DNA from: Spiroplasma syrphidicola EA-1 | GTDB lineage: Bacteria; Bacillota_I; Bacilli_A; Mycoplasmatales; Mycoplasmataceae | Reading direction: 5' to 3' | Assembly: GCF_000400955.1 (NCBI RefSeq) | Contig: NC_021284.1 | Location: 496,001-560,000 of the forward strand | DNA length: 64,000 nt | Shown here: piece after piece, positions 3-59,299 of the stretch | How positions within the stretch are numbered: the stretch's first letter is position 1 | How the letters are laid out: each line of letters begins with the position of its first letter | The notes under the pieces: generated by a model | The model's database searches: none | Seen by the model: the letters and a program-made list of their open reading frames with translations, nothing else | Told to the model about the DNA's origin: nothing | Translations under genes and position numbers: made by a program

Positions 3-2126
3 AAATATTTTGATTTTTTATGATTGTTTATTAAAGAAAATCCGGTTTTTATAACTTTGCTATGTGTAATTCTAACTACCATTTTTTGAACTATAGCTTT
101 TACTATTATTTTAATTAAAAAAGAATTGGAAAAAGTTTATATTAAAGAAGTAGATTCAACTGAATATGGTGCAGCAAAATGAATAGTTAATGAACTAAAG
201 GAAAAGGGAAAAATAGAATCTTTCAATGAACTATATCCTAGTTATAGTCTTATAAATTCTGAGCAACCTGGTTGAGCAACAAGATTTATTAAAAACAAAA
301 ATGAGTTAGTTTTTAACATTCGAGATAATACGCATGTCGTATGTTTAGGACCAACAAATTCCGGAAAGTCTCAAAAAATCGTAATGCCCTCAGCAATTTA
401 TAATGCAAATTTGGCTTCTGACAAACAACCATGTATGGTTTTTACTGATCCAAAAGGAGAGTTATATCAAAATCTTTCTAAACCATTACAAGAAAAGGGA
501 TATGAAGTATTAACCTTAAATTTACGTGATGCTAAATTATCCTCATCTTGAAACCCGCTAGCTATTGCATTCAAATATTATTATGATTCAGTTACATTAA
601 ATGAACAAATTCAGATGGTTAAATTCAATAACTTAGAAGAGTTAAAAGAAAAATTGAAAGACATTAAGTGCTATGATCATGAAGAAAGTTTTTGTTATGA
701 TTGTTTAAATTCACTAGAAGAAAAAGGACAAATTGCTATTTTTGAAAAGATGTGATTTAGAAAAGTAAGTAAAGCAGAGTTGCTTTGTGAAACAATGAAA
801 CGAGAATTAAAATCTTTTGCTATTGAAGAAATTAATGATTTAGTTTTAACAATTTGACCGTTAAAAGGGAGCGACAATGATCACTTTTCTACAATGGCCG
901 GAAGTATTGCCAAATGTTTAATGCTAGGGATGTTAGAAATATTGGATAAAGACCCAAATGAATTGACACTAGAAATGTTCAATTTGCCAACTATCGGAAT
1001 TTTGGCATCAGACCGCCAAAAAATGAAACAATGACATAATTCTTTACCTCTAAAATCAATGGCCCGAATAATTGGTTCAAATGCCTTGAAAACGGGTGAT
1101 AAAGAACTAGGTTCTATTTTATCTACGTTAGATAAAGGACTACAAATTTATCAAGATATTGGAATTCAGACTATTGTTTGTAAAAACGAAATTGATTTAT
1201 TTGCATTTACTGATAAGCCAAAAGCTCTATTTCTAATTGTGCCTGATGAAAAAACTAACCGCCATATTTTTGCCAGTTTAATTGTTTCTCAATTATATAA
1301 AGCAAATGTTCTGATAGCAAATTCACAATCTAATAAGCGTTTGCCAAGAGACATCCAATTTTATTTAGATGAATTTGGGAACATGCCAATGATTCCAAAC
1401 TTTCAAGGATTCGTAACGGTTGCTCGAAGTCGAGGGATGTTCTTTTTACTTATTTTGCAAGACTTTTTACAATTAGACCAAAAATATGGAAAAGAAAATG
1501 GGGGGATTATTCGCTCCAATTGTAACTTAAACATTTATATTCAAACAAATGATACACAAACAGCCGAAATGTATTCAAAAATTCTAGGTGATCAAACAGT
1601 AGAAGTTGTCAGTTACACAACTAGTCGCGATCCAAAAACAAAGAAAATCATTAAAAACCCACCACAAACTAGATTAGAAGGAATGCCATTAATTAAAGCC
1701 GGGGATTTGATGAAACTAAAAAATCCTTATGGAATTATTTTTAGTTCGAAAGAAAATCCAGGATTAGTTTACATGGAATCAGCCTGAAAATTTGCTAAGG
1801 AATTTAATCTAGGAAAAGAACGAAAAGAAAAAGAAATTAATACTGTTGATTTCTTAAATGACTACTTTTTTGATTTATTTTCATATGTTCCCGGTAAAAA
1901 TAATATTGATGTTGATATTTTGGTCAAACAAGAAACAGAAAGAGAGATTTCACAAAGCAAAGAAAAGGTTGAATTACCAAATATTACAAGCTTACTAGCT
2001 AAAGCACCAAGTGAAAGAACACCCGAAGAACGTGAAATTGTTGCAAAATATCGCAACATTCAAACCAAAATAAATAAAGAAGAAAATAAAAATTTAATAA
2101 ATAAAAATAAGCAAGATTTGAAATAA
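3..2126 (+). CDS. traG: VirD4/TraG-type conjugative coupling protein (5' partial)
   Basis: Couples the relaxosome to the type IV secretion channel and powers DNA export; inner-membrane ATPase. The reading frame is open from the window edge, so the start is missing. Visible are N-terminal hydrophobic segments (about residues 5-45 of the fragment), a Walker A loop GPTNSGKS around residue 120 and a Walker B-like LDEFGNMP near residue 455, in the family order. At least 707 residues are present and many TGA codons are read as Trp. The C-terminal 100 residues are Lys/Glu-rich. The stop codon lies inside a terminator hairpin. Family assignment is confident. Confidence 0.92.
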
Positions 2127-2138: not shown

Positions 2139-2184
2139 TGTGTAAAATAAAGATAATTAACATAATAATTAGGAAGGATAGCAT

Positions 2185-3225
2185 ATGAGAAATATTTTTT
2201 GGTCAGTAAAATTTATTTTTAGTTATAGTAGTATCAATGAAACAGAAAATACATCAAAGTGAACTGATATTGATATTCTACAAGCTGTTTTAGCCGGAGT
2301 TGGAGGATTAGTGAGCATAATAGCTTTAACTTTTGGTATTATTATTTGAATTAATCATCAGAGGAATTATTACTTTAAATTTGAAAAATGTTATAAAAAG
2401 TATAATAAATTTATGTATTTTTATAAAAAAAAATTTAGAAGTATGGATGTTGATACATCAATAATGTTTAAAAATATTACATTTTATTTTAATAAAAAGT
2501 ATAATATTTATTTTAAAAAAGTTGATTCTTATTATATACCATTTAAAGATTATTGTTCTTTGAATATTGTAGTAAAAAAAATCAAAAAGAGTATAAAAAA
2601 TCTTTATTGATTTTATAAAATAATCATAAAAAATAATATTCGTAAAGATAATATTTATGTCAAAATATATCAAAATTGAGAAGATTTTTTAGAACCAAAT
2701 TGAGAAAATAAAGTCATTGAAAATTCAATATATGATAGATTACATCCAAATATAATTTCTAAAAATCTTAAGATACCTATTGTTAAAAATTATAATGACT
2801 GATTAGAATATAAAAATAATTTAATTAAAAAACCAGAAAAATTAATAGCTTACATTCCCCAATTGTTTGATTTTTTTGGTAAAAAATATGCAAATGAAGT
2901 TGTTATAAAAGAACCAATTGTGGCTGATGATAAAACAATACTAAGAGGAATGTCAATGGGATTTGATGCAAATTCATGAATAAATGGATTAAATAATGGT
3001 ATAGATGATGAACGTGAATGAATTTTTGAAGTTTTTATTTTTCTTGTTCAAGAAAATATAGAATTTGAAAAAAAAATTTGAAGTTGAGATTATAGGGTCT
3101 TATCATCAGTAAATAAAAAATGATATAAAAGAAGGGCTGATTTTTCTATTTTTGAAATATGTGAAATTGAACAAAAAGGTGCTAAATATTTTGCTGAACA
3201 AATTAAAAAGCAAACAGAAAAATAA
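2185..3225 (+). CDS. Hypothetical membrane-anchored protein, 346 aa
   Basis: No family recognised. The ATG follows AGGAAGGATA at a normal spacing. One clear transmembrane segment lies near residues 34-53 (LQAVLAGVGGLVSIIALTFG region), followed by a long, basic, Lys/Ile/Tyr-rich cytoplasmic or external part with many TGA-encoded Trp. It sits 58 nt after traG, behind a terminator, so it probably has its own promoter. Extreme A+T content and the low-complexity middle are typical of Spiroplasma accessory genes. It could be a conjugation accessory or ICE cargo protein. Confidence 0.75.
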
Positions 3226-3289
3226 TAATAAAAATAACTTAATAAATACAAATAGGATAATATCTTTAAAAAAAGGGAGTGGGGGTTAT

Positions 3290-4102
3290 ATGTCAAGTTT
3301 TTATATTAAAAAATTTTTAATTGAATTAGTAGTAATTACATTTTCTACTATTTTTATTTTGGACTTTCTAATAATAATAAAATTATTTCCATGGGAATTA
3401 TTATTAATAAATTTATTAATATTATTTTTAATTCCAATTTTATTAGTTATTTCTATACCGTTTAATAAATATACAAACAATACTTTTAATTCAATTTTTG
3501 CAGAAAATATATTTGTTAAATCATACTACAATTTTGTTTGATCTAAAATTGGAATTATGTGACTTAATATAATTTTAAGAAGTGTAATAATATTTTCATT
3601 TGCGTTATTAAGTTATTTTTATTATTCTTTTAGTGTTGAAAAAAACCAAAATTCTTGAAGTATATTTTTTCTAGCTTTTTTTACATCTTTAGTACCGATT
3701 GAATTTAAACTATATTTTATATTATTTAATATTCCAGACAATTACCTTAAAAAAGGCAAAGAGAGCATCAAACAATTATATATAGTTTTATCTGAAGCTA
3801 TTAACTATATTCAAGAAAAACTTGAAAATAAGGAACTTGAAAATAAGGAACTTGAAAATAAGGAACTTGAAAATTATAAAAATTTTATTAAATTTCAAAT
3901 ATTAGATTCATTTATTTTTAAAAACTCAAAGTTTGATTTTTCAATTAAAATTGATATTAAAATATTATTGTCATGAATTAAAATAATGAAAAAAACTATA
4001 GATAGTTATTTTTTTCATTATTCAGATAAAGAAAACTTTAGTTGAGATAGTTACATTATGCTTTTATATTTTAAAACTGCTAAGTTTGAAAACAAGATAT
4101 AA
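3290..4102 (+). CDS. Hypothetical multi-pass membrane protein with LENKE repeats, 270 aa
   Basis: No family recognised. The start is placed at the ATG preceded by AAAGGGAGTGGGGG; the frame is open further upstream without a better ribosome site. Hydrophobic segments occur near residues 10-35, 38-55, 85-110 and 120-140. A short charged coiled-coil follows, built from three perfect 15-bp repeats encoding LENKE (3821-3865), then a soluble tail. It shares the membrane-plus-soluble layout of the preceding gene, so the two may work together. A terminator follows at 4161. Confidence 0.72.
3821..3873 (+). repeat. 15-bp tandem repeat, 3.5 copies, within the 3290 gene
   Basis: CTTGAAAATAAGGAA occurs three times in perfect tandem plus an 8-nt partial copy. 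The unit is a multiple of three, so copy-number change would lengthen the coiled-coil without a frameshift. Confidence 0.9.
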
Positions 4103-4104
4103 TC

Positions 4105-4340
4105 CTCGGCTGTCCGAGAAAGAGGGCAAAAAGAAAAGTGCGCACACTTTTGCGCCCACGAAAAAGGCTGTAAACACAGTCTTTTTTATACTTTAGCGCG
4201 CACTTTTATGCCCTCTTGTAGAGTGAGTGCGCCCACGATTTTTCCGATATCTATCGGAAAAATTGGGGTTGTGCGCGCACTCCTTATCCTGCTTCTGAAA
4301 TTACTCCGTAATTTTCGAAGAAATGGGGTATAATGTTAAG
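4105..4340. other. Repeat-dense intergenic region, candidate oriT or replication origin
   Basis: No gene is visible. In order: hairpin CTCGG/CCGAG (4105-4118); a long interrupted inverted repeat with arms AAGAGGGCA + AAAAGTGCGC (4120-4143) and GCGCACTTTT + TGCCCTCTT (4198-4217); an 11-bp direct repeat TGCGCCCACGA (4151-4161 and 4228-4238); 8-bp arms GAGTGCGC/GCGCACTC (4225-4232, 4275-4282) enclosing a perfect 11-bp palindrome TTTTTCCGATA/TATCGGAAAAA (4239-4262); and a small inverted repeat near 4297-4316. The region is far richer in G+C than its surroundings. The architecture resembles origins of transfer or plasmid origins; function is inferred. Confidence 0.55.
4161..4187 (+). terminator. 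Intrinsic terminator
   Basis: AAAAAGGCTGT pairs with ACAGTCTTTTT (one G-T pair) around an AAAC loop, ending in a T-run. It terminates the 3290 gene and lies inside the inverted-repeat-rich region. Confidence 0.75.
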
Positions 4341-4410
4341 GTAGATGACCAAATGACACATGCTACGATTTTTATCGTATGCATGTGTTTTTTATTTGGT
4401 AAAGAACAAA
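4329..4410 (+). promoter_or_regulatory. ICE leader element, copy 1 (promoter plus nested hairpin)
   Basis: TATAAT at 4329-4334 is followed after 6 nt by a 70-nt element (4341-4410) repeated almost exactly three more times in the ICE. It folds as an outer stem ACCAAAT/ATTTGGT (4348-4354, 4394-4400), a middle stem ACACATGC/GCATGTGT (4356-4363, 4381-4388) and a top stem TACGAT/ATCGTA (4364-4369, 4374-4379) with a TTTT loop. A T-run follows the middle stem, so the inner hairpin looks like an intrinsic terminator at the start of the transcript. This copy precedes the 4432 gene and, further on, the traE operon. Confidence 0.8.
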
Positions 4411-4431
4411 TTAGAATGAAAGGTTTAATAA

Positions 4432-4992
4432 ATGTCATTAAGTGAAAAAAATAAACTAGATAAATTAAGTACATTGTGATCAAAGATAGATTCTGAATAT
4501 AAATATTCTAGAAATGAAAGTATTCTGAGAAATGGATGAATATTGGGCCAATTTATTGGTAATCCGGAGTTAGATTTAATTTGTAGTAATAGTAATATCC
4601 TAAATTTAGTTAATTTAGCTTATTCATTTAAAGAAATGAATGATGAAGAATTTAACGCGAAATTTAATGATTTGCCAGAAAATGTTGAAAAATACCAAGT
4701 TGTTAATTTTAATGAAAAATTCCCAATGAAAGATGGAAGTGATTTAGCCTTGAATCGTGAAGAAGCCATTAAAGAAATTAAAGAGTTGATAAAAAATGAT
4801 TCGGAATATACTTTTACAGCAACTGGTTATTGCCCGGTAGAAAATGAAGATGAAGATTTAACAGGAGATGGCCATTATTGAACGCAATGAGATGATTTAA
4901 CAAGTGAAGAATTAATTGATAAATTAAGCGATCATAATTATCAAATTGAAGTCTGAATATGTAATGAATTATCTAACGAGATGGAATTATAA
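4432..4992 (+). CDS. Hypothetical acidic protein, 186 aa
   Basis: No family recognised. The ATG follows GAAAGG 9 nt upstream and lies 21 nt after leader element copy 1, so it is the first gene of that unit. The product is soluble and strongly acidic (runs such as ENEDEDLTGDG and DDLTSEEL), without signal peptide or membrane segment. Acidic small proteins in conjugative elements are sometimes anti-restriction DNA mimics, but no such family signature is visible here. Confidence 0.75.
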
Positions 4993-5867: not shown

Positions 5868-8543
5868 ATGAATAATAGTATCATCGCTCCTCAATTAAAA
5901 AAGCAGAAGTTAAAGTTAAAAGATAACTTTACGTTAGTTGATTTAGCCTTTACGCTTATTTATGCAGTTATTGCTTTTTTGATTGGTTATAATTTAGTAT
6001 TTTTATCAATGCTAATTCGAATAATTATTGGTATAACGGTGTTTATGTTTTTAATGCTGACGTTAATTCATTCAGAACGCTATAATGCGAAAATCTATAT
6101 GATTGCAATTCGAGGATTCATTTTTTGGAGTAAAAAGAAAAAGTTTAGTATAGATTCTAAAACTAATAACACATCTTTACTAATGCCTTATCGAAAATTG
6201 CATGATGAAGGTTATATTGAAACAAGTATTTTAGAGGGTGGTAAAAAATGATATATTAGTGCCTTAGAAGTTAAAGGTATTAATATCACAACTTTAGATC
6301 CCGAAGAACAAATCCTAAAATTAGAACAATTAGCTAGTATGTTTCGTTTGACCGATTGTCAATTAAGTTTAGTAAAAATGGAGCGTCCTCATAATCTGAA
6401 TAAGAATTTGAAATTTCTACAAACAGTCATGAATAAATTAGAAGAATTAAAGAAAACTAAAAAATTATCTAAACATGGTTATGATAGTAGAACAAAACAA
6501 TTGGAAGGTTATCAAAACTTATATTCTGACCAGGAAGGAATTTTAGGATATTCACAAACGGCAAAGACTTTTATTTTATTTATTTATGAAACAGAAGTTT
6601 CAAAACTATTTAAAGCTGTTAAATTAATTAAAAGTAAAATTAATGAAATAAATTTGCGAGCTGAAGAAATTACTAAATATGAATTAGTAAATAACATTAA
6701 ACTTATTTTTAATCCATATGACGAACCGTTTTCTAATGAAAAAATAGATGAATATAGTAACAAACTAAATGAACTATTAGCAATTGATAATATTACATTT
6801 ACCCAAAATAATTTTAAAATTAATGATGTTTATTATTCGGTAAAAGGAGTTAGAGATTATCCAACTTATCCTCAGAATGGTTGAGCAGCTAAATTATGTG
6901 CAACAGATAGTACTGTTATTATTAACATTGCTAAAACTAATTTAGATGCAGTTAAAGAACAATTACACAGGGCAATGGTAAATGCACGTACTAACTTTTT
7001 TTCAATTAAAAGAACTGTTAATCGAACAGAAAAAGAAAATGAATATCAGTCGTTTGAAAATCTAGTAAATTTAATTTCTTCTGGTGAAGAAACAATTAAA
7101 AGAGTTAATGTCTTATTTTTGAACTATGGTGTTGATAAGAAAACTTTAAAACAAGCAGAAGAAAGTGTGGAATTGCTTTTAAAACAACAAAATATGAAAA
7201 TGGATTATCTGCTTTTCAAGCAAATAGATGGATATAGTGGGATCTTACCAAAACCAACTGACCCAACAGCATATACAAATTCATTTGAAATGCCGTGTGT
7301 AACTATTGGTAATTCATTTCCATTTCTAAATAATGCTTTAGAAGATGAAAAAGGTTTATTTGTTGGTTATAACTCGACAGGTGATGTTGTATTTTCTGAT
7401 CAGTTTAAGCGAGGGGGAGACTATCAAAATTCGAATGCCTTTTTTATTGGAACAACTGGGGGAGGTAAAACAACAACTGTTAGCAAATTTCTAAATTACC
7501 ATATTGCCTTAGGTCGCAAAGTAATTATTATTGATCCCAAACGAGAATTTGGTCAGTTATGTAACTATCATGATGGCAATTGAATTGATGCAGGAAGTGG
7601 GACAAAAGGTAATTTTAATCCTTTGCAAATTCAAGTTCCAGTTGATGAAAATATTAGTATTGAAATGGTTATTGGAGACCATTTACAAATTCTAGAAACA
7701 TTCTTTCGTTTTACAGAACCTTCATTTTATGAAGAGGAAATAAAATTCTTATTGCAAAGAATATTAGATTTTTATTTATCTTTAAAAGTTAATAAATCAA
7801 ATAAAATAGTAAAAATGAAAAATAGTGATTGGCCAACTTTTAGTGATTTAGTTATCTTTTTAAAAGCACAAATTCCGAATTTGGGTGAAGAAATCCTTTT
7901 AAATAAAATTATTAAAACAATTGAATATGATTTTACCGGGTATGGGAAATATGCGGCTTTATGAAATAAGCAGTCATCCGTTAGTTTAGCTAATAACTTA
8001 TTAAATGTGCTAGACATTCAAACCTTATATTCAAAATCACAATTTAATGTTTTAAAAGCTCAAATGTTCTTAATGTTAAATTTCATTCGAAATGAAATTA
8101 ATAATAATCGTTTTAATGATAATAATGAAATCATTCTTGCTGTTGATGAGGCCCACGTTGTTATTGATCGCGATAATCCACAAGCTTTAAAATTCTTATT
8201 TGAAACAGTCAAAATGATTAGAGGATTTAATGGGGGTGTTATGTTAGTCACCCAAAACTTATCAGACTTTAAAACAACCCCGGAATTAGAACGTGAAGCA
8301 ACAGCAATTTTGAACAATGCTCAATATGTTGGAATTTTAAAACTAAAACAAAAAGATTTACAGGATGTGAGCGATTTGTACCAGGCAAGTGGTGGTTTAT
8401 CATCGGCTGAAATTAACTTTTGTGCAACTGCGCAAAGGGGAGATATGTTATTTATGGCAACAGATTATAATCGCCATTGCCTACATGTTGAATTAACTGA
8501 AATTGAACAAGAAGCAATAGGTATTAAACTAACAGAAAACTAA
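5868..8543 (+). CDS. traE: VirB4/TraE-type conjugation ATPase with fused N-terminal membrane domain, 891 aa
   Basis: Energises assembly and substrate movement of the type IV secretion channel. The ATG follows GGAGATG and overlaps no other gene. Residues 20-80 contain two hydrophobic segments resembling a VirB3/PrgI-like module fused to the ATPase, as in many Gram-positive systems. Walker A GTTGGGKT is at residues 528-535 and Walker B LAVDEAH near 757-763. A C-terminal NAQYVGILKLKQKD segment matches the VirB4 fold. The frame is intact when TGA is read as Trp at several positions. The best recognised gene of the element. Confidence 0.95.
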
Positions 8544-8564: not shown

Positions 8565-8741
8565 ATGGGAAAACAGAGTAAAAAAACAACAAAATCAAAT
8601 AATTTTAGAATCCAACTAAAATTATCCCCGGAAACATATTTTGAAGTTAAAAAATATACTGATGAAGAACATTCGTTGGGGGATGTAATTCGATATTTTA
8701 TTACTGAGGGATTAAAACAAAATGAAAAAAGTGATGATTAA
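8565..8741 (+). CDS. Small ribbon-helix-helix-like protein, 58 aa
   Basis: A short basic N-terminus precedes FRIQLKLSPETYFEVKKY and a helix pair ending YFITEGLKQ, the pattern of a MetJ/Arc-type ribbon-helix-helix DNA-binding protein. The ATG follows GTGAGG 21 nt after the traE stop. The last 20 nt overlap the next gene. Such proteins in conjugative elements act as relaxosome accessories or repressors. The fold is inferred from pattern alone. Confidence 0.68.
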   Translation: MGKQSKKTTKSNNFRIQLKLSPETYFEVKKYTDEEHSLGDVIRYFITEGLKQNEKSDD

Positions 8742-9012
8742 TGATTTGGCCAAACAGTTAGCATCAAAAGCTAATCTAACTCAAAAGCGATCAAAAGAGT
8801 TAATAAATTTAACTTTTGAATTAATTAGTGATGAATTAACTAATGATAATGAGGTTTTAATATCTAACTTTGGTAAATTTAAAACAATAAATGTAAATCG
8901 TGAAGAAACTGTTTTAAAACAAGAACAATATAAAATAAGGGCCAGTAAAACAGTTAGTTTTTCATCAGCCAAAAAGTTTAATCAGTATTTCAGGAGAGTA
9001 AATCATGAGTAA
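8722..9012 (+). CDS. HU/IHF-like DNA-binding protein, 96 aa
   Basis: Residues 1-90 match the HU/IHF family: N-terminal helices (INDLAKQLASKANLTQKRSKELINLTFELISDEL cannot be confused easily in spacing), then VLISNFGKFKTINVNRE and an arm-like region ending SFSSAKKF. The characteristic IxxFGxF core is present as ISNFGKF. Such proteins bend DNA and can assist relaxosome assembly or act as nucleoid proteins. It overlaps the preceding and following genes, so the three are translationally coupled. It differs from a chromosomal HU in its unusual arm sequence. Confidence 0.8.
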   Translation: MKKVMINDLAKQLASKANLTQKRSKELINLTFELISDELTNDNEVLISNFGKFKTINVNREETVLKQEQYKIRASKTVSFSSAKKFNQYFRRVNHE

Positions 9013-9478: not shown

Positions 9479-9723
9479 TGAATAAATTTAATTTTAATAT
9501 ATAATATTTTTAAATATCAAAAGTATTAAAATATTTATTAAAAATTAATAATTAAATAAAATTAATTATATAGTGACAATACAAAAATTAAAATTTACAA
9601 AATAATAAATTCTTTAAAATATATTTTTTAATTTTATTTAAATTTTAATTATTAATCTTACTAACTATGCTCAAATATAAACTATGGATGGGTCAGGGTG
9701 GGAAAACAGAAAGAAGGAAAACT

Positions 9724-10182
9724 ATGAAAAATATTTTATTAAGTTTAATAAGTTCTACTTTTATAGGAGTTAGTGTGTCACCAGTAATAACTAATTATAA
9801 AATAATTGAAAAATCAGTTAGGGAAGATAAAGATATTACTAATATTGATACTTGAAATGTAAGTGGTGTACATAATATTTTTAAATTAGAGATGGGTAAA
9901 ATTCTAGATTTGTTTAGATCAAACCAGAATGATCAAAAAAATTGAATAATTTGGTATTTACAAAAATTGGCTCCTGATGCTGTAATTAGGGATATTAATA
10001 TTATAGAAGCATTTCATGCCGTAAAAATATCAGAAAAAAATTATATTATTGATGCAGCCCATCCTTATAAAACTGATGAAGTCCCGGAAGTTGGATATTT
10101 TTATTTAGAAGTAAATGGAAACAATATTATAGGAAATGATGTTATTGGCATTTCATATATTTTAGTTGAACAAACAAAATAA
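9724..10182 (+). CDS. Exported protein, 152 aa
   Basis: A signal peptide (MKNILLSLISSTFIGVSVS) without a lipobox cysteine precedes a 130-residue domain of unknown type; TGA is Trp at several sites. The start is chosen because of the signal peptide and the AGAAGGAAAAC ribosome site. A G-rich stretch with GGGTCAGGGTGGG precedes it and resembles the leader of the exported protein at 16,784. It is probably surface-exposed ICE cargo. No family recognised. Confidence 0.78.
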
Positions 10183-10233
10183 ATATTTTATGTAGATAGT
10201 ATTTAAAATTTTATAAATTAAATAATTTTATAG

Positions 10234-10315
10234 TATAATATTTGTGTAGATGACCAAATGACACATGCTACGATTTTTATCGTATGCATGTGTTTTTTAT
10301 TTGGTAAAGGACAAA
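10234..10315 (+). promoter_or_regulatory. ICE leader element, copy 2
   Basis: TATAAT at 10,234-10,239, then the 70-nt element at 10,246-10,315 with all three stems of copy 1 conserved. The upstream context TATAGTATAATATTTGT is shared with copies 3 and 4. It precedes the 10,368 gene by 52 nt. Confidence 0.8.
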
Positions 10316-12630: not shown

Positions 12631-13060
12631 AATTCTTAGATGCCATATTCCTTATGATAATGGAGAAAATCCACCAACTTCTAAAGATGATAATAAACCT
12701 AGAAGATTATTAATTTATGAAGATACTTCTAAATTTTTAGTTTGTTTTAATATTACTAAATTAACTCAAAATAATATGTACAAATTAATTCAGTATAAAA
12801 ATATGTTAAAAATTTCTAAAATAAAAAACCCGGCTTTATTAAAATGTGATTCTATTCTTAAATTAAATAAAATATTTGTTATTGAAAAGTTTGATGGAAT
12901 TGAAAGATCTTTGTTTTCAAATGTGGAATTGGATATTTCTGATTTAATAAGAATTGAGGAAAGAGTAAAAGAAATATATAAATCAGATTTAGACCAAGAA
13001 ATAGTTAAAATATCAAAGAAAGTTTTTCAATTTTTAAATAATGATTTGTATGAAGTATAG
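12614..13060 (+). CDS. Putative toxin partner of the Panacea antitoxin, 148 aa
   Basis: Overlaps the antitoxin gene by 17 nt. No ATG is available: the start is TTG at 12,614 or GTG at 12,620, giving (M)KNKILRCHIPYDNG. The beta-rich first 80 residues (RRLLIYEDTSKFLVCFNITKL and CDSILKLNKIFVIEK) resemble the PemK/MazF-type strand order, but the match is weak. The stop at 13,058-13,060 directly abuts the TATAAT of leader copy 3. The toxic function is inferred from position and overlap. Confidence 0.62.
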   Translation: MIVKNKILRCHIPYDNGENPPTSKDDNKPRRLLIYEDTSKFLVCFNITKLTQNNMYKLIQYKNMLKISKIKNPALLKCDSILKLNKIFVIEKFDGIERSLFSNVELDISDLIRIEERVKEIYKSDLDQEIVKISKKVFQFLNNDLYEV

Positions 13061-13143
13061 TATAATATTTGTGTAGATGACCAAATGACACATGCTACGA
13101 TTTTTATCGTATGCATGTGTTTTTTTATTTGGTAAAGAACAAA
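13061..13143 (+). promoter_or_regulatory. ICE leader element, copy 3
   Basis: TATAAT at 13,061-13,066 and the element at 13,073-13,143 (71 nt, one extra T in the T-run). All stems are conserved. It lies 18 nt before the 13,162 start and controls the unit that ends with the TrbL-like gene. Confidence 0.8.
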
Positions 13144-22156: not shown

Positions 22157-22172
22157 TATTTCATTTTTATAG

Positions 22173-22255
22173 TATAATATTTGTGTAGATGACCAAATGA
22201 CACATGCTACGATTTTTATCGTATGCATGTGTTTTTTTATTTGGTAAAGGACAAA
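22173..22255 (+). promoter_or_regulatory. ICE leader element, copy 4
   Basis: TATAAT at 22,173-22,178 and the element at 22,185-22,255 (71 nt). All stems are conserved. It is 21 nt before the primase start and heads the primase-relaxase-surface protein unit. Confidence 0.8.
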
Positions 22256-22276: not shown

Positions 22277-23314
22277 ATGTTAGAGGTATTTCGTGATTAT
22301 TTAAAATTATCGAAAAGAGGGCGAAATTATGTTGCAATTTGTCCTTTTCATAGTGATTCGCATCCTAGTTTATCAGTATCGGTAGAAAAACAAGTTTGGC
22401 GTTGTTTTGTTTGCAATGTTGGTGGAACAGTTGAATATTTTGTTGCTAAAATAGAAAATCTTTCAATTAATGAAGCTAAGCAATTAATTGCAGTTAAATA
22501 TAATTTAGATCAGCAACAGACAATTACACAGGCAAAACTAGTCCCTCAAACTGAAAAAGATAAATTATATCAATTGAACAATTTAACCATGTTATATTTC
22601 AAAAATAGTCTAAATACAATAAGTGGCGTAACAGCAAAAGAATACTTACTTAATAGAAAATATTCTGAACAAACAATTGATGAATTTGATTTAGGATATT
22701 CCAATAATGATGATCTAATTAACTTTTTACTAAAAAAAGGTTATGGCCAAGAAGAATTAATTAAAGCTAATTTAGCTAGACTAAACTATAAAGATGAATT
22801 GTGCAGTGTTTTTAAAGAACGTGTTATGATTCCGATTAAAAATGAAAACAATCAAGTTGTTGGTTTTTCTGGCAGAGATTTAACAAATACAAGTCAAATA
22901 AAATATCTTAATTCAGCAGAAACAGATGTGTTTACTAAAAGTAATATATTATTTAATTTAAATAAAATTCCGGAATTTCAAAAAGAAATTACGGTTGTTG
23001 AAGGTTATATGGATGTTATTTCATTGGCCCAAAACGGAATTCCAGCAGTTGCTTTAATGGGAACTAATTTATCAAGAAATCAAATTTCCATACTATCAAA
23101 GCGTTTTGATAAAGTTAATGTTTTTCTAGATAATGATAATCCAGGAAGACTAGCTAGTGAAAAAATAAATAACTTATTGGCAAATGCAGGAATAACTGTG
23201 AACGTAATTAAAAATAATAGTCAGTATAAAGATGCTGATGAAATTTGTCAAAGCAAGAGTTTCGATTTATTAAAACAATTATACAAAAATGAGGCGGAAT
23301 ATGAGCTTGAATAA
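22277..23314 (+). CDS. Short DnaG-type primase, 345 aa
   Basis: Synthesises RNA primers on single-stranded DNA, probably to complete the transferred strand in the recipient. A CHC2-type zinc finger uses Cys22, His25, Cys43 and Cys46. The catalytic core has a Toprim domain with VVEGYMDV (Glu242, Asp246) and LDNDNPGR (Asp285, Asp287). Chromosomal DnaG has about 600 residues; this protein lacks the C-terminal helicase-interaction domain, as in many plasmid primases. Start follows AAAGGTAAAT. It overlaps the relaxase gene by 14 nt, linking priming and transfer. Confidence 0.93.
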   Translation: MLEVFRDYLKLSKRGRNYVAICPFHSDSHPSLSVSVEKQVWRCFVCNVGGTVEYFVAKIENLSINEAKQLIAVKYNLDQQQTITQAKLVPQTEKDKLYQLNNLTMLYFKNSLNTISGVTAKEYLLNRKYSEQTIDEFDLGYSNNDDLINFLLKKGYGQEELIKANLARLNYKDELCSVFKERVMIPIKNENNQVVGFSGRDLTNTSQIKYLNSAETDVFTKSNILFNLNKIPEFQKEITVVEGYMDVISLAQNGIPAVALMGTNLSRNQISILSKRFDKVNVFLDNDNPGRLASEKINNLLANAGITVNVIKNNSQYKDADEICQSKSFDLLKQLYKNEAEYELE

Positions 23315-24626
23315 AACTGGCGGGTATAAGCATGCTGATCAAAGTGTCCCGGTAATTTGAAAGATAATTCGGTTTTCAAAAAACAGTGAAAAATTTCAGT
23401 CCAAACGAAAATATTATAAAAGCGGCGATTATTGAAAATACATTACTAGACCAGAAGCATTATGTAAATGCTGTTTAAATAATGATAAACTAAAAAACTT
23501 AAAAAATGCTGAATCAGCAAAAGACTATACTAAAAAAATTAATGAAATTTCTAAAAGTGAAGATAAAAAAGATACCGGAATTTATGCTAATGGCAAAAAA
23601 CTAACCCCAGCACAAGCAGATGAAATGAGTAGCAAAATAAAAAATCTTGAAGAAAATCAATTACTGTGGGATTGTGTATTAAGTTTTTCAAATGATTTTG
23701 AAAAGGAATACAATTTGCATAATCGTGAACAAATTGCTGAAGTAATTGATTCTAATATTAAAAAATACTTTCGTAAAGCTGGATTAGATCCAAACAATTT
23801 AGACTATTGATTTGTTGTCCATGACAATACTGAAAATATTCATGCTCATATTGGGTTTATGGAAAAAGAGCCAAAATCATTGGCAAAAGGGGGTAAGGAA
23901 TTTAAGTATCGTGAAATGGGTAAAATATCAGAAGAAGCTAATGAATATTTTCGGTTTCAAACTCAGCAATATGTTGAAAATAGAAGAGAATTTTTTAAAG
24001 AGTTACGAACAAAGCGAGATGAAATAACACCAAAATTTAGGATGCAAGTTCATAATGATATTAAAAATAATTCCGATGAATTAACTAATTTAATTAAAAC
24101 TTATTTAACAGATGTTCCAATCCATAAGAATGGTAAGCATTTTAAATATGGAGAGTTATATAAAACTGCTCCCGAAAAACAACTACAACTTCGTAATATT
24201 GTTAATTATGTAATTCAGAATAATGATGATCTTAAATTTCAGTTTGATGACTATGTAATAAGTTTACAAACTCACCGTGATCAATTAATTAAGGATAGTG
24301 AAAATAATAAAACAGCTATTGATAAAGCAAATAAATGATATTGAAAAGAAATTTATGGTGATGGATTATATCGAAGACTATCTAATGCATTTTTAAATAC
24401 TTTATACTTTAAACCAAAGCGAGCAAGAAAAGCAAAATATCCGCCAGGATTATATGAGGGAATAAACAAACCTTTTAATTGAAAATATAATTCATTATCA
24501 AAATTGACTTATGAATTATCTCAACAATTTGGTGGTGCAATGCAAAATGCCATGAATAATTTTAGACAATTACAGAATGAAATTCATAACGTTAATAGTT
24601 ATGAAATCAAAGCAAAGGGGGAATAA
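23301..24626 (+). CDS. mob: MobL-type relaxase, 441 aa
   Basis: Nicks the origin of transfer and pilots the single strand through the channel. The metal-binding histidines are visible as VVHDN (His174) and IHAHIGF (His181, His183), spaced as in MobL/MobP relaxases of Firmicutes. A CKCC cluster occurs near residue 57. Candidate catalytic tyrosines lie in the N-terminal 50 residues (GGYKHAD, KYYKSGDYW). It overlaps the primase gene and is followed 3 nt later by the surface-protein gene, so all three are co-expressed behind leader copy 4. Reaching full length needs TGA as Trp. Confidence 0.85.
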
Positions 24627-24629
24627 ACT

Positions 24630-27527
24630 TTGAAAGTATTATTATCAATTATCACAGCATCAACTTTATTAACAGCACCAATTTTATCATTAACAACACA
24701 TCAAATAATTTCATTATATAGTAATTTAAAAGGAACACCATTTCACCCAGATATTAAAATATCAACAAAAGCAGAAGAGCGTAATAGACAAGAAGGTAAC
24801 TTAAATCATTCAGAAAAAAAGGGGTATCCTGGATATACATCTATTACATGAATAAATTATGCTGATTCATGAGAAGAATTTAAACAATATTATAAAACTA
24901 TTACTTTATATACTTCTGGTTATGCTGATGGAAAAGAAGCCGGGAGAAAGGATTTTGGGGATGTCTCTATAACTATTGCAAATCTTGAACAGATATCAAG
25001 TTGACATAGTGATGATATTTTAAGAGCAAGTGGGTCTCCCTATTGTCTTGTATATACATCAAAAAACTTTACTTTTGGTTCTTATGATCAATCAGGAGTC
25101 TATTGAGATGCAATTGTTTCTGGAACTTTAATCCAATTTAGATTTTTTTTGTGAACAAAAGCACATCAAGCTGGAACAGGATCTATTTGATCAGAAGCAT
25201 ACATTAATTTTAATGGAGGTATTGTTTCATCAAAATGAAATTTAAATTCTATAAAGAATAATTTATCAATTGCTTTATCTAATGAAATTAACTTTGTTTC
25301 AAATTACTCTGGAAGTCTAATTGACCAACGTAATATTAAAGACCCAACAGGTAAAAATAATGATTTAACCTCACTATTAAGCGCTAAAATTTCAAATGTT
25401 TTGGGAAATGAATATAATGATTGAAAACAATATATTCAACCGTATTCTTTTAGTGATTTAACACGAAAAGCAACAACTATTATTAAATTTAAAAATCCTA
25501 CTACTAATCAGCAAGAAGTTTGGTCATTTGAAACACCAATAAAAATTACGTTATCAAAAGACTATTGAAGTAATGAGTTGAATGAACGATTGCATATTTT
25601 ACCTGGTAAAGTAGTTAATCCAGATGATTCAACAAAAGGAATGGTTACAGATGCACCTGAACAATTGGCTCCACCTGATACTTCAAAGAATTATGGGGGT
25701 AAATGACGTTATCACACAACAGTTGGATTAGAATTTGATGCTTTAGAGCAAGCAGAAGATGTTACAGTTAATCCCGAATGAGTTGAAATAAATGGCGTCA
25801 AAATTGATGTTTTAGATAATAAGTTTATTGCTACACTAGAAGATAATCGTATTAAGGGCGAAGAAAAAAATGATTATTCCATTGTAATCCGCCATAAAGA
25901 TAGTGAATATGATATTATGTATACTATTGATATTGTTATTGAAACGTTAGTACCAAATTTAAAGCTAAAATGGCATGCATGAGATCCAGAACACAATCCA
26001 AAGCAAAAAGAATTAATTACTCCGAATTTGGAAAATGGACAACCTAATCCTAAATATGATAAAGAAATCAATCCGGATACTGGGACAAAAACACAAATAA
26101 TTTGAGTTAAACAAAAATCAACTGTGCCTTTTCCGTTAGATCCATTAAATAAAAATGGGGAAGTTATAAACCCAGAAAAGAATCCAGAAGAATATGATTT
26201 AGGTTTTATTGCCGAAGGTTCAGTTGTTGGAAAAGGGGTAAACCAGACTTTTTCAAGTGAAGCAATAAAAAATGTTTACCGGGAAGGGATTGATGAAAAA
26301 TCATTTAAAGCTTTTGAAACTCCTAATGATAGACAAAGAAACCAAAAAATAACTTCAAACTCAGCAACGCAGTATTGATCAGATAGTGGAATTTGACATT
26401 ATACAGTAGAAATGTCTGACAAAACTACGGCACAAAAATATGCTATTATTGGTCCTGAATATCAAAATCAGTACCCCCGTTTTTTAGATGTTATTGAAAA
26501 TAATCAAGCAGTCGAATTTTGAACAACAATTCATGGTGTTCATTTAAAAAATTATTTATCCACTTATAAGAATTTAGATTCTACCGGGATTGCGCAATTG
26601 AATTATGAACAAGTTGCCGCTTATTGAAAAGATTATACAAGTGATATTATTGCCCAAAAAATTCCGCCAAATCCAACTCCTGAAAACTACAAGGATATTA
26701 GCGGTAATATAGATGTTTTAAAATTAAATGAAGAAGAAGTTAATCCTATTCGTGATGCAATTATTGATAAAGTTAAAAAATACATTAACAAATTTACCAA
26801 TAAAGCCATTCTTGGAATTGATTATCAAATTCAAACCCCTGATGGTAAAGATATTACAGTTGATGCATCCGGGTTTGAACCTTTGCTAAATAATAAAGAT
26901 AATCCACAATTTCTAACAGTTTCAGTTAATACTTTAGTTACTTCAACACTTTTAATTGGTAACGCGACTTTGTCAATCCGTAATTCCTCAACTTATAATC
27001 CAGAAACTAGTTATGATTTAAGTGCAATTCAGTTTAAAAATTATCAATATAATTTTTCTAAGTTTAGTACTGAACAATTAAGAAATTGAATTTATGAAGA
27101 TGTTGAAAACTACATGACTAGCTATAAATATAATGATATTGATCTAAATGAAGACTATGGAATTTCAGCAAATAAAATTCCTGATGAAAATCCCGAAACA
27201 CATGCAAATACACCAGGAGATTTATCAGATGCTGTTTTAAATGAATTTTTAAAGGCAGAAACTTCTGTTTCAACTTTAAAACTATTCATTTATTCAGCTT
27301 CAACAAGTGATAAAACAACAGGTTATTCAGAATATACATTGATAAATGATTCTGAGTCTGAAATTGTTCCCCCAGACCCTCCAACGCCACCAGACCCAAA
27401 TAAACCGCATGCTAATTCCCAACATAAATATTTATCATGGTTATTACCAATAATTTTATTGCCAATTGTAGGTTTAGGAATATTTATGACATGGTTTATT
27501 ATTCGCCGACGTAAAAAAATTAGATAA
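24630..27527 (+). CDS. Large surface protein, adhesin-like, 965 aa
   Basis: The start is TTG at 24,630, preceded by AAGGGGGAATAAAC. A signal peptide (MKVLLSIITASTLLTAP) opens a 920-residue extracellular part; a Pro-rich stalk (VPPDPPTPPDPNKP), a final transmembrane helix (LLPIILLPIVGLGIFMTWFII) and the basic tail RRRKKIR anchor the C-terminus. Genes for adhesion-related proteins next to mob and tra genes are known from Spiroplasma citri and S. kunkelii plasmids; this gene has the same position and architecture, but sarpin repeats are not obvious. It may mediate mating contact or insect-cell adhesion. Confidence 0.82.
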
Positions 27528-27678: not shown

Positions 27679-29178
27679 ATGTACCAAAATAGTATTAATT
27701 TTTCTTTGTATCAAAATGACTATTCACAAAATATTTTTAAACAAATTGAAATGTTTAAGAATTTTGAAGAAGAAGTTAAAAATAAAACTAGAAAAGCTAT
27801 TCAAGAACATTATGAAGAATTGGATTTACATTTACGTAGAAAATACTCAAATAATAATAAAGGATATATTCTTTATGGTAAGCGTCCAGCCACTTTAATT
27901 ACTGAATGAGGACCAGTTACTTATGAAAGAACAAGATTTCGTTATTATGATCGAAAAGAGTATAAACATAAATATGTTTTTTTGTTAGATGTTGAAATTG
28001 GCCGTAAACCTTATCAACGCCTACATTTTGATTTATATGTTAAAATTTTAAAAGAACTTGATAGTGGTAAACGCTACCGGGATATTTTAGATAAATATAA
28101 GTATTCAGAAATTTCATTAATGACAATTTCAAACATTAACCGAAGTATTAATTTGCAAGAGTATAATAATTTTTGTTCTAATTTTGATAAGAAAAAAATT
28201 AAGTTCAAAGAAAAATATTTGTATGTCGGCATTGATGATACATACACCAATATTTTTAATTACAACAAAAAATTACGAAAGAAAGAAATTAGTAAAAGTA
28301 CAATCCGGATGGCATATGCTCATACCGGTTTTGATAAAAAAAAGTCAATTAATAATCGTAGAGTTTTAAAAGATAAAAAATTATTTATGATTTTAAATGA
28401 CAAAGGGAAAAATGAATTATACAATTATGATCAAAAATTGTATAAGTTTCTAAATGAAAACTATGAGTTAAAAGATAAGAAAGTTGTTATTCTTGGAGAT
28501 GGGGCGACATGAATTAAAACAACGGCATCACAACTTCATGGCGATATTGTTTTAGATGAATTTCATTTAAAAAAGTATTTACATCAATGTTTTAGTTTTC
28601 GTAGGTTTAAACTAAAAATAAAAGGTTATTTAAATTCAATCGAAATTAAAAAGCGAGCAATATATTATGACCTGGAAGCATTTATTAAAAATGGTGATGT
28701 AACTAATTTAATAAAATATATTGAAGATTTATTAACACCACTTTATCAAAATAAATTTGTGTTTTTAAGACATAAAAATGTTCAAATTCAAGAACTTTTA
28801 AAATATGTTAAAAATAACAAAGAAGGAATTAATAATTATAGTAAAGAATACTATATTGGTTCACAAACTGAATCGCAAATTTCCCATAATGTTAAGTCTT
28901 TAAAATCATACGGGGCAAAGGCATATAGTAAAACAACATTTTCCAATATGTTAAGCATGAGAATGGCCAAAGTAAATGGATGAGATCCAATTGATATTAT
29001 TATCAATGATTATAATGATGAAATTAAAGCTAGAAAGAATTATTTTTTCCAAAATATTTGAGTAAAGAACAATATTGATGAAGAATATATTCCAAAGCAA
29101 GGTTCTGTGCCAATTTTAAAATCAAGAACTAGCTCATTTGCTAGGGCAGTTCGAGGTATTTTAAGTACTAAAAACTAA
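27679..29178 (+). CDS. UPF0236 / ISLre2-family DDE transposase, 499 aa
   Basis: Full-length member of the UPF0236 family: N-terminal coiled region, KRPATLITEWGPVTYERTRF motif near residue 68, LYVGIDDTY near 185, VVILGDGATWIK near 270 and LDEFHLKKY near 288, which hold acidic catalytic candidates. It cuts and joins DNA ends. The frame is intact using TGA as Trp. It is the last gene of the ICE region, directly before core chromosome. Either it is an independent insertion sequence or the recombinase that moves the whole element. No terminal inverted repeats could be identified by eye. Confidence 0.9.
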
Positions 29179-56303: not shown

Positions 56304-56328
56304 AAAATAGCCTTTTAAAGGCTATTTT
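56304..56328 (-). terminator. Intrinsic terminator after the repeat protein
   Basis: AAAATAGCCTTT pairs with AAAGGCTATTTT. It begins right after the stop at 56,327. Confidence 0.85.
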
Positions 56329-59299
56329 ATTTAAGTATAACTTCTTTATTAATATTAATATTTTTGTCAAAATCTATTTTTAATAAAATTTTACTCGTAT
56401 CTTTTTTAGTAGACGATTGTTCTTTTATTGTGAAGGTAACTTCAATTGTACCAGGATTATAAATTGTACTGTCATCTTTTGCTTTGATAGTAGCTTTTGT
56501 TTCTTCAGCAACTCCGTCTAATTGGATTTCAGTAATGTCGACATCCTTGTTTACTGTTTGAATAACGTTAAGGATTGTTTGTTCTTCGTTGTTGTCAAGT
56601 TCGCCTAATGTTGTTTCTGTGATTACATCGCTTAGATCTTTTTTCGTATTTTCTTGTTTTATTGTGAAGGTAACGTCGACAGTTCCAGGATTATAAATTG
56701 TACTGTCATCTTTTGCTTTGATAGTAGCTTTTGTTTCTTCAGCAACTCCGTCTAATTGGATTTCAGTAATGTCGACATCCTTGTTTACTGTTTGAATAGC
56801 GTTAAGGATTGTTTGTTCTTCGTTGTTGTCAAGTTCGCCTAATGTTGTTTCTGTGATTACATCGCTTAGATCTTTTTTCGTATTTTCTTGTTTTATTGTG
56901 AAGGTAACGTCGACAGTTCCAGGATTATAAATTGTACTGTCATCTTTTGTTTTGATAGTAGCTTTTGTTTCTTCAGCAACTCCATCTAATTGGATTTCAT
57001 TAGTATCAACTTGGTCATTTTTTGCTTTAATGGCATCAATGATTGTTTGTTCTTCGTTGTTGTCAAGTTCGCCTAATGTTGTTTCTGTGATTACATCGCT
57101 TAGATCTTTTTTCGTATTTTCTTGTTTTATTGTGAAGGTAACGTCGACAGTTCCAGGATTATAAATTGTACTGTCATCTTTTGTTTTGATAGTAGCTTTT
57201 GTTTCTTCAGCAACTCCATCTAATTGGATTTCATTAGTATCAACTTGGTCATTTTTTGCTTTAATGGCATCAATGATTGTTTGTTCTTCGTTGTTGTCAA
57301 GTTCGCCTAATGTTGTTTCTGTGATTACATCGCTTAGATCTTTTTTCGTATTTTCTTGTTTTATTGTGAAGGTAACGTCGACAGTTCCAGGATTATAAAT
57401 TGTACTGTCATCTTTTGTTTTGATAGTAGCTTTTGTTTCTTCAGCAACTCCATCTAATTGGATTTCATTAGTATCAACTTGGTCATTTTTTGCTTTAATG
57501 GCATCAATGATTGTTTGTTCTTCGTTGTTGTCAAGTTCGCCTAATGTTGTTTCTGTGATTACATCGCTTAGATCTTTTTTCGTATTTTCTTGTTTTATTG
57601 TGAAGGTAACGTCGACAGTTCCAGGATTATAAATTGTACTGTCATCTTTTGTTTTGATAGTAGCTTTTGTTTCTTCAGCAACTCCATCTAATTGGATTTC
57701 ATTAGTATCAACTTGGTCATTTTTTGCTTTAATGGCATCAATGATTGTTTGTTCTTCGTTGTTGTCAAGTTCGCCTAATGTTGTTACTGTAATTACATCA
57801 CTTAGATCTTTTTTATCATTGACAACTGATAGTGTAAAGTTTACCGTTTGTGTGCTACCTGGTTTATAATCTTTACTATCACTTTTTGCTTTAACAATTG
57901 CTTCTGTATTGCTAGGAGTCCCGTCTAATTGAATTTGGTTAATGTCCAAGTCTTTGTTTGCTGTTTGGATAGCATCAAGAATTGTTTGTTCTTTATTGTC
58001 TTCAAGTTCACCCAAAATTTTTACTAAAATAACATCTTTTAATTCTTTTTTTAACTCAAATTGAATTTCAATTCCTTTATCATTTGGTAAATAAAATTGA
58101 CTATCTTTAATTGGTTTGATTGTAGCTTTTGTATCAGTAATATTCTCAATTAAAATTTCTGACATGATAAGATCTTTATTTTTATTTTTAAGATTTTCAA
58201 GAATAGTAGAATCTGACTTGTCATTAATTTTTTCTAGATTTGTTACTTTTAAATCTGTTGATAGTTCTTTTTTGACAATGTATTCAAATGATACTTGCAT
58301 TGTATCATCACTAAGATATTGACTATTAGCATCTTTGGCTGTTAAATTATAAAATTTACTTTCAGCATTTCGTCCTGATTTAGTTTCAGTAAGTTTAAGC
58401 TCCGCGGTTTTTAATTGATTATTTTCTGGATAACTAGCAATAATTGCCAAAATTTCATCAAGATTACTTTTAGAAATGTCATCAGTAAAAGTAGTTTTTT
58501 TAAGATGAGTTGATAAAGTAATTTTTGTTGCTTTAAAAGTAACTTTAATTGTTGAATTACTTTTGTAAACTGTACTATTAGGTTTTGGATAAACAACAGC
58601 ACTTGCTTCAGTAATATCTTTAACTAATAATTCTTTAATTTGTAATTCTAAATTTTGTTTTTGGGCTTCTTGTAAAATTACTTCAGGCTTATTACTTGAA
58701 ATAGTTGTTAAATTAGTTATTGTAAAATCGTTAGATAAAAGAATTAAGTTATTTTGACTATTTGCTTGATCAGTTAAAAAATATCAAGTTATAAAACCAC
58801 CACTAGCCCCAAGTAACAAAATTAATAAGACAAAAATAATAGCTATTTTTTTACGCATTTTTGAAATGTGAACTAAATAAAAATTATTTTTAACTTGTAA
58901 TTCTTTAATTGCTGAAATTTGTGATTGATTAGATAATTGATTATTACCAGAAGGTATTAAACTATTTTTACTTTGCATAATTGTTTCGCGAGACAAAGTA
59001 ATCGTATTATTAATGACTGGCAATTTTGATAAACCAAAATTATCATATAGATTATCTTTTCAAATAAAAACATAAGAATCATAAGGACAGCGGATTATTC
59101 CGACTGGCCGAATTCCTTGATCTTCTCTTATTGAACGATTAGGGTCAATACGGCAATTAAAAATATCTAAATTTTGGATATTTTTGCTTGAATTATGTTT
59201 AATATTGTTGATTATATCATTAAATTTTTTTTGACATGCTGGGCACATACGATTATATAAAATATCAAGTTTATTTTTCACTTTTTCAGTTTTCTCCAT
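56327..59299 (-). CDS. Large membrane-anchored surface protein with tandem repeats, 990 aa
   Basis: The frame runs without a stop from 59,299 to 56,327 when TGA is Trp. Residues 1-150 are a cytosolic part with a MCPACQKKF Cys motif (possible zinc site); a single transmembrane helix (IAIIFVLLILLLGASGGFI) lies near residue 155; the rest is extracellular. It is built from about ten copies of an 78-residue beta-rich domain of the form KKDLSDVITETTLGELDNNE...IQLDG...TIYNPGTVDVTFTIKQE. The last six copies are nearly identical at DNA level. The domain recurs in Spiroplasma surface proteins (from memory). Likely host-contact or phase/size-variable surface protein. Confidence 0.88.
56411..57814 (-). 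repeat. 234-bp tandem repeat array, six units
   Basis: Unit boundaries (minus strand, from the 5' side) at 57,814, 57,580, 57,346, 57,112, 56,878 and 56,644. The units between 56,879 and 57,580 are almost perfectly identical; the outer units differ by a few codons. Each encodes 78 residues, so gain or loss of a unit preserves the frame. Older, diverged copies continue to about 58,780. Confidence 0.9.

What the first reader, a model, noticed from the sequence alone, without database searches (positions are those of the whole stretch)
4105..4340. Dense inverted repeats in an unusually GC-rich gap: candidate transfer or replication origin
Seen directly: a long interrupted inverted repeat (19 paired bp; arms at 4120-4143 and 4198-4217), a perfect 11-bp palindrome (4239-4262) held within 8-bp arms, an 11-bp direct repeat, and two smaller hairpins, in 230 bp that separate two divergently organised blocks of ICE genes. 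Conjugative elements carry nested repeats of this kind at oriT or at plasmid origins. The relaxase gene is 19 kb away, which is not unusual.
Basis: partly seen in the sequence, partly recalled or inferred. Interest (0 to 1): 0.72.

Follow-up and report, generated by a model that had tools for sequence, protein, structure and literature searches.

The report
Transfer origin of a Spiroplasma ICE
The hairpin-rich gap is almost certainly the DNA site where a mobile element of a wall-less insect bacterium is cut by its relaxase to start moving into another cell, with a nick site that can be predicted to the base, which matters because no such site has been pinned down in the mobile elements of these minimal bacteria.

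Summary
The repeats are real, at the stated coordinates, and far beyond chance. The region is best explained as the oriT of an ICE in Spiroplasma syrphidicola. Directly 3' of the big inverted repeat (arms 4225-4232/4275-4282) lies CTTATCCTG|CTTCT (4283-4296). This matches the published MOBP nick consensus (C/T)ATCCTG(C/T), 9 nt from the repeat. The predicted nick is 4291^4292 on the + strand. The ICE encodes a MOBP-type relaxase (23289-24626; PF03432; HUH fold). The 225-bp module is 98% identical in S. chrysopicola although the genes on both sides differ there. In a 78%-identical relative the hairpins keep pairing through double changes. The same anatomy, with unrelated arm sequences, occurs beside relaxases only 24-26% identical in other spiroplasmas, in the S. 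corruscae plasmid and in other Bacilli. In those Bacilli, 6 of 11 such motifs have a repeat, against 25 of 985 permuted controls. Relaxase loci of the mycoplasma family (f7) and spiroplasma plasmids lacking this relaxase did not show it. Nicking itself is untested. The flanking genes are not divergent: both are on the + strand. New member of a known kind, with an unusual tandem-cruciform layout.

The parts
4099..4323 (+). whole oriT module as duplicated elsewhere in S. chrysopicola
   Evidence: the segment copied in inverted orientation at G001:1002348-1002573 (96%) spans window 4099-4323
4105..4118 (+). small 5' hairpin CTCGG-CTGT-CCGAG
   Evidence: pairing kept in all seven related copies, with G-T pairs in the two eroded ones; CTCGGCTTTCCGAG in G008 beside a 24%-identical relaxase
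4120..4217 (+). stem A (first cruciform): outer arms 4120-4143 / 4198-4217
   Evidence: outer helix kept in all five near copies; analogue with other arms in G034
4161..4186 (+). inner hairpin of stem A (AAAAAGGCTGT / ACAGTCTTTTT)
   Evidence: 2 pairs with changes on both sides between copies
4225..4282 (+). stem B (second cruciform, nick-proximal inverted repeat): GAGTGCGC / GCGCACTC
   Evidence: 2 pairs changed on both sides (T-A to C-G, G-C to A-T) in the G011 copies
4239..4262 (+). inner palindrome of stem B
   Evidence: CCGATA/TATCGG becomes ACGGTA/TACCGT in a G011 copy
4283..4297 (+). nick region CTTATCCTG|CTTCTG; predicted nick between 4291 and 4292
   Evidence: matches (C/T)ATCCTG(C/T) of MOBP (PMC3772185); TTATCCTGCTTCTG kept in all 7 related copies apart from one C-to-A in G011_77
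4292..4320 (+). hairpin just 3' of the nick (would be the first DNA to enter a recipient)
4328..4400 (+). adjacent dispersed promoter-leader repeat: TATAAT 4329-4334, then terminator-like hairpin 4348-4399
   Evidence: 8 copies in this genome, in front of ICE operons; not part of the duplicated oriT module
23289..24626 (+). relaxase, MOBP type with three-His motif H178/H185/H187
   Evidence: PF03432 27.6 bits over the 24.6 cut-off; MobP2/MobP3-like but below those cut-offs; best fold matches are conjugative relaxases, Z 7.6-10.0
24..2126 (+). VirD4/TraG coupling protein
   Evidence: PF02534 1.9e-38; CD1115-family VirD4-like 2.3e-73
5868..8543 (+). VirB4 ATPase, Mbov_0397 ICE family, in the predicted leading region
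   Evidence: NF045975 1e-270
8722..9012 (+). HU-like DNA-bending protein encoded by the ICE, possible relaxosome helper (inferred)
   Evidence: PF00216 4.2e-15
27679..29178 (+). transposase-like protein (Mbov_0401 family) near the right end of the ICE; hisS and aspS follow
   Evidence: NF046004 2.1e-87

Best explanation
4099-4323 is the origin of transfer (oriT) of a mycoplasma-type conjugative element (ICE) in Spiroplasma syrphidicola. The ICE's own MOBP-type relaxase (23289-24626) is recruited to the inverted repeat 4225-4282. It then cuts the + strand in TTATCCTG|CTTCT between 4291 and 4292 and stays bound through its active tyrosine to the 5' end that starts CTTCTGAAATTAC. The strand then leaves 5' first, so the genes from 4432 on (including virB4) enter the recipient first and the coupling-protein gene (24-2126) among the last. 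The repeated half-palindromes GTGCGC/GCGCAC that form the outer arms of both stems are probably binding sites of an accessory protein. The repeats, the nick motif, the conservation and the relaxase are shown; nicking, strand, recruitment and accessory binding are inferred.
For: (1) Nick motif: of the TATCCTG copies in the window's ICE part, only 4285-4291 has an inverted repeat next to it; those at 11441 and 24825 have none. The repeat ends 9 nt before the predicted nick; in the RP4 oligonucleotide of PMC3772185 the repeat arm, as I recall its extent, ends 8 nt before it. (2) Relaxase: PF03432; HUH motif invariant in 11 homologues; relaxases lead the fold matches. (3) Conservation: the element is 98% identical in S. 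chrysopicola while window 2155-4099 and 4412-4964 on either side have no match there; 78% identical over its full length in G011; the nick 14-mer occurs in only 4 of 60 family genomes. (4) Pairing kept by double changes: 8 pairs, 0 of 500 shuffles, slid controls at most 1. (5) Same plan, other letters, beside diverged relaxases: G034 AGAGTGATATCAC...GTGATATCACTCT, 8 nt, nick, again with an inner hairpin and a palindrome shared by both stems; G042; G008; S. corruscae plasmid NZ_CP022536 with a 28-bp repeat. ATCCTG ranks first of 180 permutations there: 4 of 27 sites have upstream folding of -18 kcal/mol or better against 38 of 5898. (6) Other Bacilli, loci picked by relaxase alone: CCTTATCCTG|Y after a repeat at 7 of 19 loci; 6 of 11 sites against 25 of 985 permuted sites. 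(7) A MAG contig with a 26%-identical relaxase has TTTATCCTG|CTTC 0.8 kb upstream of it.
Against: No nicking or mobilisation data exist. The oriT is 19 kb from the relaxase gene. The relaxase scores below the curated MobP2 and MobP3 cut-offs. With the plain motif and a stricter repeat score the Bacilli set shows no excess (1 of 35 against 60 of 4278); the excess appears with the longer motif seen in the window, so part of that test is after the fact. More than half of the relaxase-bearing loci outside the family, and those fetched from the mycoplasma family f7, show no such site. Folding energy alone cannot tell a DNA element from an RNA.
Confidence: 0.91

Rival explanations
1. A structured non-coding RNA or a 5' leader transcribed rightwards from the TATAAT-like sequence at 4098-4103.
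For: RNA folding z = -8.9 on the + strand, a little stronger than on the - strand; some pairs vary through G-U; a terminator-like hairpin follows one copy (G001:1002).
Against: No Rfam match. Arm sequences are unrelated between elements while the CTTATCCTG next to the repeat is constant, and it is the published nick consensus. As single-stranded DNA it folds just as exceptionally (z = -9.8).
Confidence: 0.04
2. A rolling-circle replication origin (dso) of the excised element, with the relaxase acting as replication initiator; it could be the same site used for both purposes.
For: HUH enzymes start both processes, and nicking of oriT by a relaxase also starts rolling-circle replication (PMC5357655).
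Against: The nick motif is the conjugative MOBP one, and the site accompanies this relaxase type across unrelated elements.
Confidence: 0.03
3. An oriT, but nicked at the IncQ-like (MOBQ-like) stretch GAGTGCG|CCCAC (4225-4236) rather than at TATCCTG.
For: GTGAGTGCGCCCACG resembles the RSF1010/pGO1-type nick region as recalled from memory.
Against: It is not kept in the G011 copies (AAAAGCGCACTC), although TATCCTGCTTCTG is kept exactly in one of them and with one change in the other. The relaxase is PF03432, not the MobA/MobL family of MOBQ.
Confidence: 0.02

Closest known systems
IncP/MOBP oriT (RP4, Agrobacterium VirD2 sites, Helicobacter pylori tfs4)
   Same: Inverted repeat immediately 5' of (C/T)ATCCTG(C/T), about 8-9 nt from the nick, in an element with a PF03432-type relaxase (PMC3772185).
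   Different: Two tandem cruciforms, each with an inner hairpin and outer arms built from one repeated half-palindrome, plus a small 5' hairpin; relaxase is MobP2/MobP3-like; oriT is not beside the relaxase gene.
pSKU146 of Spiroplasma kunkelii, reported IncP-like oriT (PMC1318496)
   Same: An IncP-type oriT was already claimed for a spiroplasma plasmid.
   Different: The ATCCTG sites found here in NC_006400.1 have no inverted repeat beside them, and the record is not matched by the window's relaxase.
ICEA of Mycoplasma agalactiae and other mycoplasma ICEs
   Same: Same backbone proteins: Mbov_0397 VirB4, Mbov_0399, Mbov_0401 transposase-like.
   Different: Their oriT is not known; a hairpin TGGCTCAT-N5-ATGAGCCA was only suspected (PMC6030558). 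No ATCCTG-plus-repeat excess at relaxase loci of that family.
oriT of pLS20 (MOBL relaxase)
   Same: Nested direct and inverted repeats and a GC-rich patch.
   Different: Nick sequence differs (signal drop after GAATCGGGGGCCGG, PMC5313138) and so does the relaxase family.

Membership tests
MOBP/IncP-type oriT | nick core ATCCTG, consensus (C/T)ATCCTG(C/T) | tested here: met
   TATCCTGC at 4285-4292, conserved in the related copies
MOBP/IncP-type oriT | inverted repeat immediately 5' of the nick | tested here: met
   4225-4282, 9 nt from the predicted nick
MOBP/IncP-type oriT | cognate MOBP relaxase encoded by the same element | tested here: met
   PF03432 above the gathering score; relaxase fold
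MOBP/IncP-type oriT | site-specific nicking and mobilisation in cis | not testable with these tools
   needs purified relaxase and a mating assay
MobP2 relaxase family (NCBIfam NF041498) | whole-protein score at or above 200 bits | tested here: not met
   68.9 bits, E 5.9e-19: related, not a member by the curated cut-off
MobP3 relaxase family (NCBIfam NF041499) | whole-protein score at or above 150 bits | tested here: not met
   58.0 bits
MOBP relaxase | three-His (HUH) motif III and a tyrosine in motif I | tested here: met
   H178, H185, H187 invariant in 11 homologues; conserved YITR near residue 54 is the likely motif I; the tyrosine's role itself is inferred
Known RNA family | Rfam gathering score | tested here: not met
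   no match in the window
Mycoplasma-type ICE | VirB4 of Mbov_0397 type, Mbov_0399 and Mbov_0401 homologues | tested here: met
   all above curated cut-offs

The most novel reading that the evidence does not exclude
A distinct oriT class used by MobP2/MobP3-like relaxases across spiroplasmas and other Bacilli. It has an extended nick site C(C/T)TTATCCTG|Y behind a repeat whose arms hold a palindrome iterated several times in the region (GTGCGC here, TGATATCA in G034, GGTATACC and CGTATACG in two other Bacilli). The palindrome would be an element-specific address read by a co-varying accessory protein, while the nick site stays constant.
Probability: 0.4. Interest if true: 0.65.

Novelty: new member of a known kind. 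Interest (0 to 1): 0.55.

Why it matters
ICEs drive gene exchange in wall-less bacteria, yet in the papers read here their oriT was unknown (M. agalactiae, PMC6030558), and spiroplasma plasmids gave either no oriT (PMC2386487) or a predicted one that I could not match to this anatomy (PMC1318496). A site with a nick predicted to the base and a named relaxase makes relaxosome function in mollicutes directly testable. It also gives a search rule for oriTs of MobP2/MobP3-like elements in other Bacilli.

Tried and rejected
Rfam and tRNA scans of the window: nothing. Distant blastn of the region against plasmids: nothing. Exact nick-region pattern in genome contigs: nothing (near relatives may be left out there). 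Relaxase loci of families f7 and f3 of the order: 199 ATCCTG sites, none with folding of -18 kcal/mol or better, no excess over 179 permutations, so the rule is not extended to them. Spiroplasma plasmids without this relaxase (pSKU146, pSci2, S. poulsonii, S. melliferum and others): no repeat-plus-ATCCTG site of this kind. Idea that virB4 directly follows oriT in all elements: true for the S. corruscae plasmid (26% identity) and near it in the window, but not for G034. RHH accessory protein among small ICE proteins: none recognised by Pfam. Terminal inverted repeats of the ICE: no clear pair found, so its left end is not placed.

Full report
The window is bases 496001-560000 of a 1,107,344-bp genome. 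That length equals Spiroplasma syrphidicola EA-1 in the table of PMC4607517, and the closest relative G001 (1,123,322 bp) equals S. chrysopicola DF-1 (one search shows the table). TGA is read as Trp.

The observation. The region is 44.5% GC in a 26.7% GC window and among the richest 0.1% of stretches. Folded as single-stranded DNA, 4105-4320 gives z = -9.8 with 0 of 200 shuffles as good. One statement is wrong: the flanking genes are not divergent, since ORFs 3152-4102 and 4432-4992 are both on the + strand.

The surroundings. The genes are those of a mycoplasma-type ICE: VirD4 coupling protein 24-2126, Mbov_0397-type VirB4 5868-8543, an HU-like protein 8722-9012, a primase 22277-23314, a relaxase 23289-24626, an Mbov_0399 homologue 24630-27527 and an Mbov_0401 transposase-like protein 27679-29178. 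Beyond it lie hisS and aspS. The relaxase has PF03432 above its cut-off and resembles MobP2 and MobP3 below theirs. Its three histidines are invariant among 11 homologues. Its predicted model has modest confidence (mean pLDDT 69), but conjugative relaxases fill the top 19 rows of the structural comparison, Z 7.6 to 10.0 over about 140-155 residues at 3.4-4.4 A.

The key motif. Directly 3' of the repeat 4225-4282 stands CTTATCCTGCTTCTG. PMC3772185 states that MOBP relaxases (RP4 TraI, Agrobacterium VirD2) and H. pylori Tfs4 VirD2 need ATCCTG, consensus (C/T)ATCCTG(C/T), with an inverted repeat immediately upstream. Here the repeat ends 9 nt before the predicted nick. The other TATCCTG copies in the ICE, at 11441 and 24825, have no repeat beside them.

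Conservation. The element occurs in S. chrysopicola (98%, and a second copy at 96%), in G011 (78%, and a shorter copy), and as eroded copies at G000:829 kb and G001:525 kb. In S. chrysopicola 4099-4412 is 98% identical, while window 2155-4099 and 4412-4964 on either side have no counterpart there. A gene gap that is better kept than its neighbouring genes argues for a function in cis. The second S. chrysopicola copy spans 4099-4323, which outlines the unit. Among five near copies 8 pairs changed on both sides and still pair; no shuffle of 500 reached that, and slid structures gave at most 1. The set is small and holds essentially two lineages.

The same plan in diverged elements. I fetched up to 40 kb around homologous relaxases in the family and scanned for the nick motif with a repeat at 5-14 nt. 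G034 has AGAGTGATATCAC-inner hairpin-GTGATATCACTCT, 8 nt, TATCCTG|CTACA. It also has a first stem with its own inner hairpin, a small hairpin further upstream, and the same palindrome TGATATCA in both stems: the plan of the window with other letters. G008, whose relaxase is 24% identical, even keeps the small hairpin CTCGGCTTTCCGAG and then TTATCCTG|TT. The S. corruscae plasmid NZ_CP022536 has a 28-bp repeat and TTATCCTG|TT. ATCCTG came first among 180 permutations of its letters: 4 of 27 sites with strong upstream folding against 38 of 5898.

Outside the family, 19 loci chosen only by MobP2/MobP3 matches gave CCTTATCCTG|Y just after a repeat in seven: L239, L240, L246, L247, L248, L251 and L252. 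Counted with the longer motif, 6 of 11 sites have a repeat against 25 of 985 permuted sites. With the shorter motif and a stricter repeat score there was no excess (1 of 35 against 60 of 4278), so I treat this as supporting, not decisive. A MAG contig labelled Gastranaerophilales has TTTATCCTG|CTTC 0.8 kb upstream of a relative of the relaxase.

Limits. Relaxase loci of the mycoplasma family f7 showed nothing of the kind. Spiroplasma plasmids not matched by this relaxase showed nothing either. That includes pSKU146, for which an IncP-like oriT was reported (PMC1318496); its ATCCTG sites have no repeat beside them here.

Mechanism, shown and inferred. Shown: the anatomy, the conservation, and the presence of a cognate type of relaxase. 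Inferred: nicking at 4291^4292 on the + strand; attachment to the CTTCTG end; entry of the 4432-onward genes first; recruitment by stem B; an accessory protein on the GTGCGC half-palindromes.

Immediately downstream lies a 73-bp promoter-leader unit with TATAAT and a terminator-like hairpin (4328-4400). It occurs eight times in this genome, mostly in front of ICE operons. It is not part of the oriT module, but it would place a promoter 38 nt behind the nick, in the first DNA to arrive.

Verdict. An ordinary kind of element in an unusual place and shape: the oriT of a spiroplasma ICE, a new member of the MOBP oriT kind, confidence 0.91, interest 0.55.

Noticed in passing
4328-4400, 10233-10305, 13060-13133, 22172-22245; outside the window G000:C1 495463, 493658, 563712(-), 831207(-): A dispersed 73-bp unit (GTATAAT, then GTAGATGACCAAATGACACATGC..., a terminator-like hairpin and T run) sits in front of ICE operons such as the primase gene; the hairpin changes on both sides in G011 and still pairs. 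It looks like a shared ICE promoter with an attenuator; nothing was found about what would relieve it.
   Followed up: partly
L049 (G001:C1:1002348-1002573 +): S. chrysopicola's ICE holds a second, inverted oriT copy 5.3 kb from the first, in place of window 9491-10204, followed by a terminator-like hairpin. Two opposed oriTs in one element are odd.
   Followed up: partly
L011 (G000:C1:829231-829354 -) and L050 (G001:C1:525735-525836 -): Solitary eroded oriT copies away from any relaxase match, shortened by deletions between the repeated arms; a similar arm-to-arm deletion is seen in G042 (L097). Possible ICE remnants or mobilisable hitchhikers.
   Followed up: partly
56327-59299 (-): A 990-aa ORF whose opposite strand shows a ladder of open frames every 234 bp, so the protein probably carries several tandem 78-aa repeats.
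   Followed up: no
L251 around 6957 and L247 around 11324: In two Bacilli elements the candidate oriT lies within arrays of GGTATACC or CGTATACG palindromes that are nearly absent elsewhere in the locus.
   Followed up: partly
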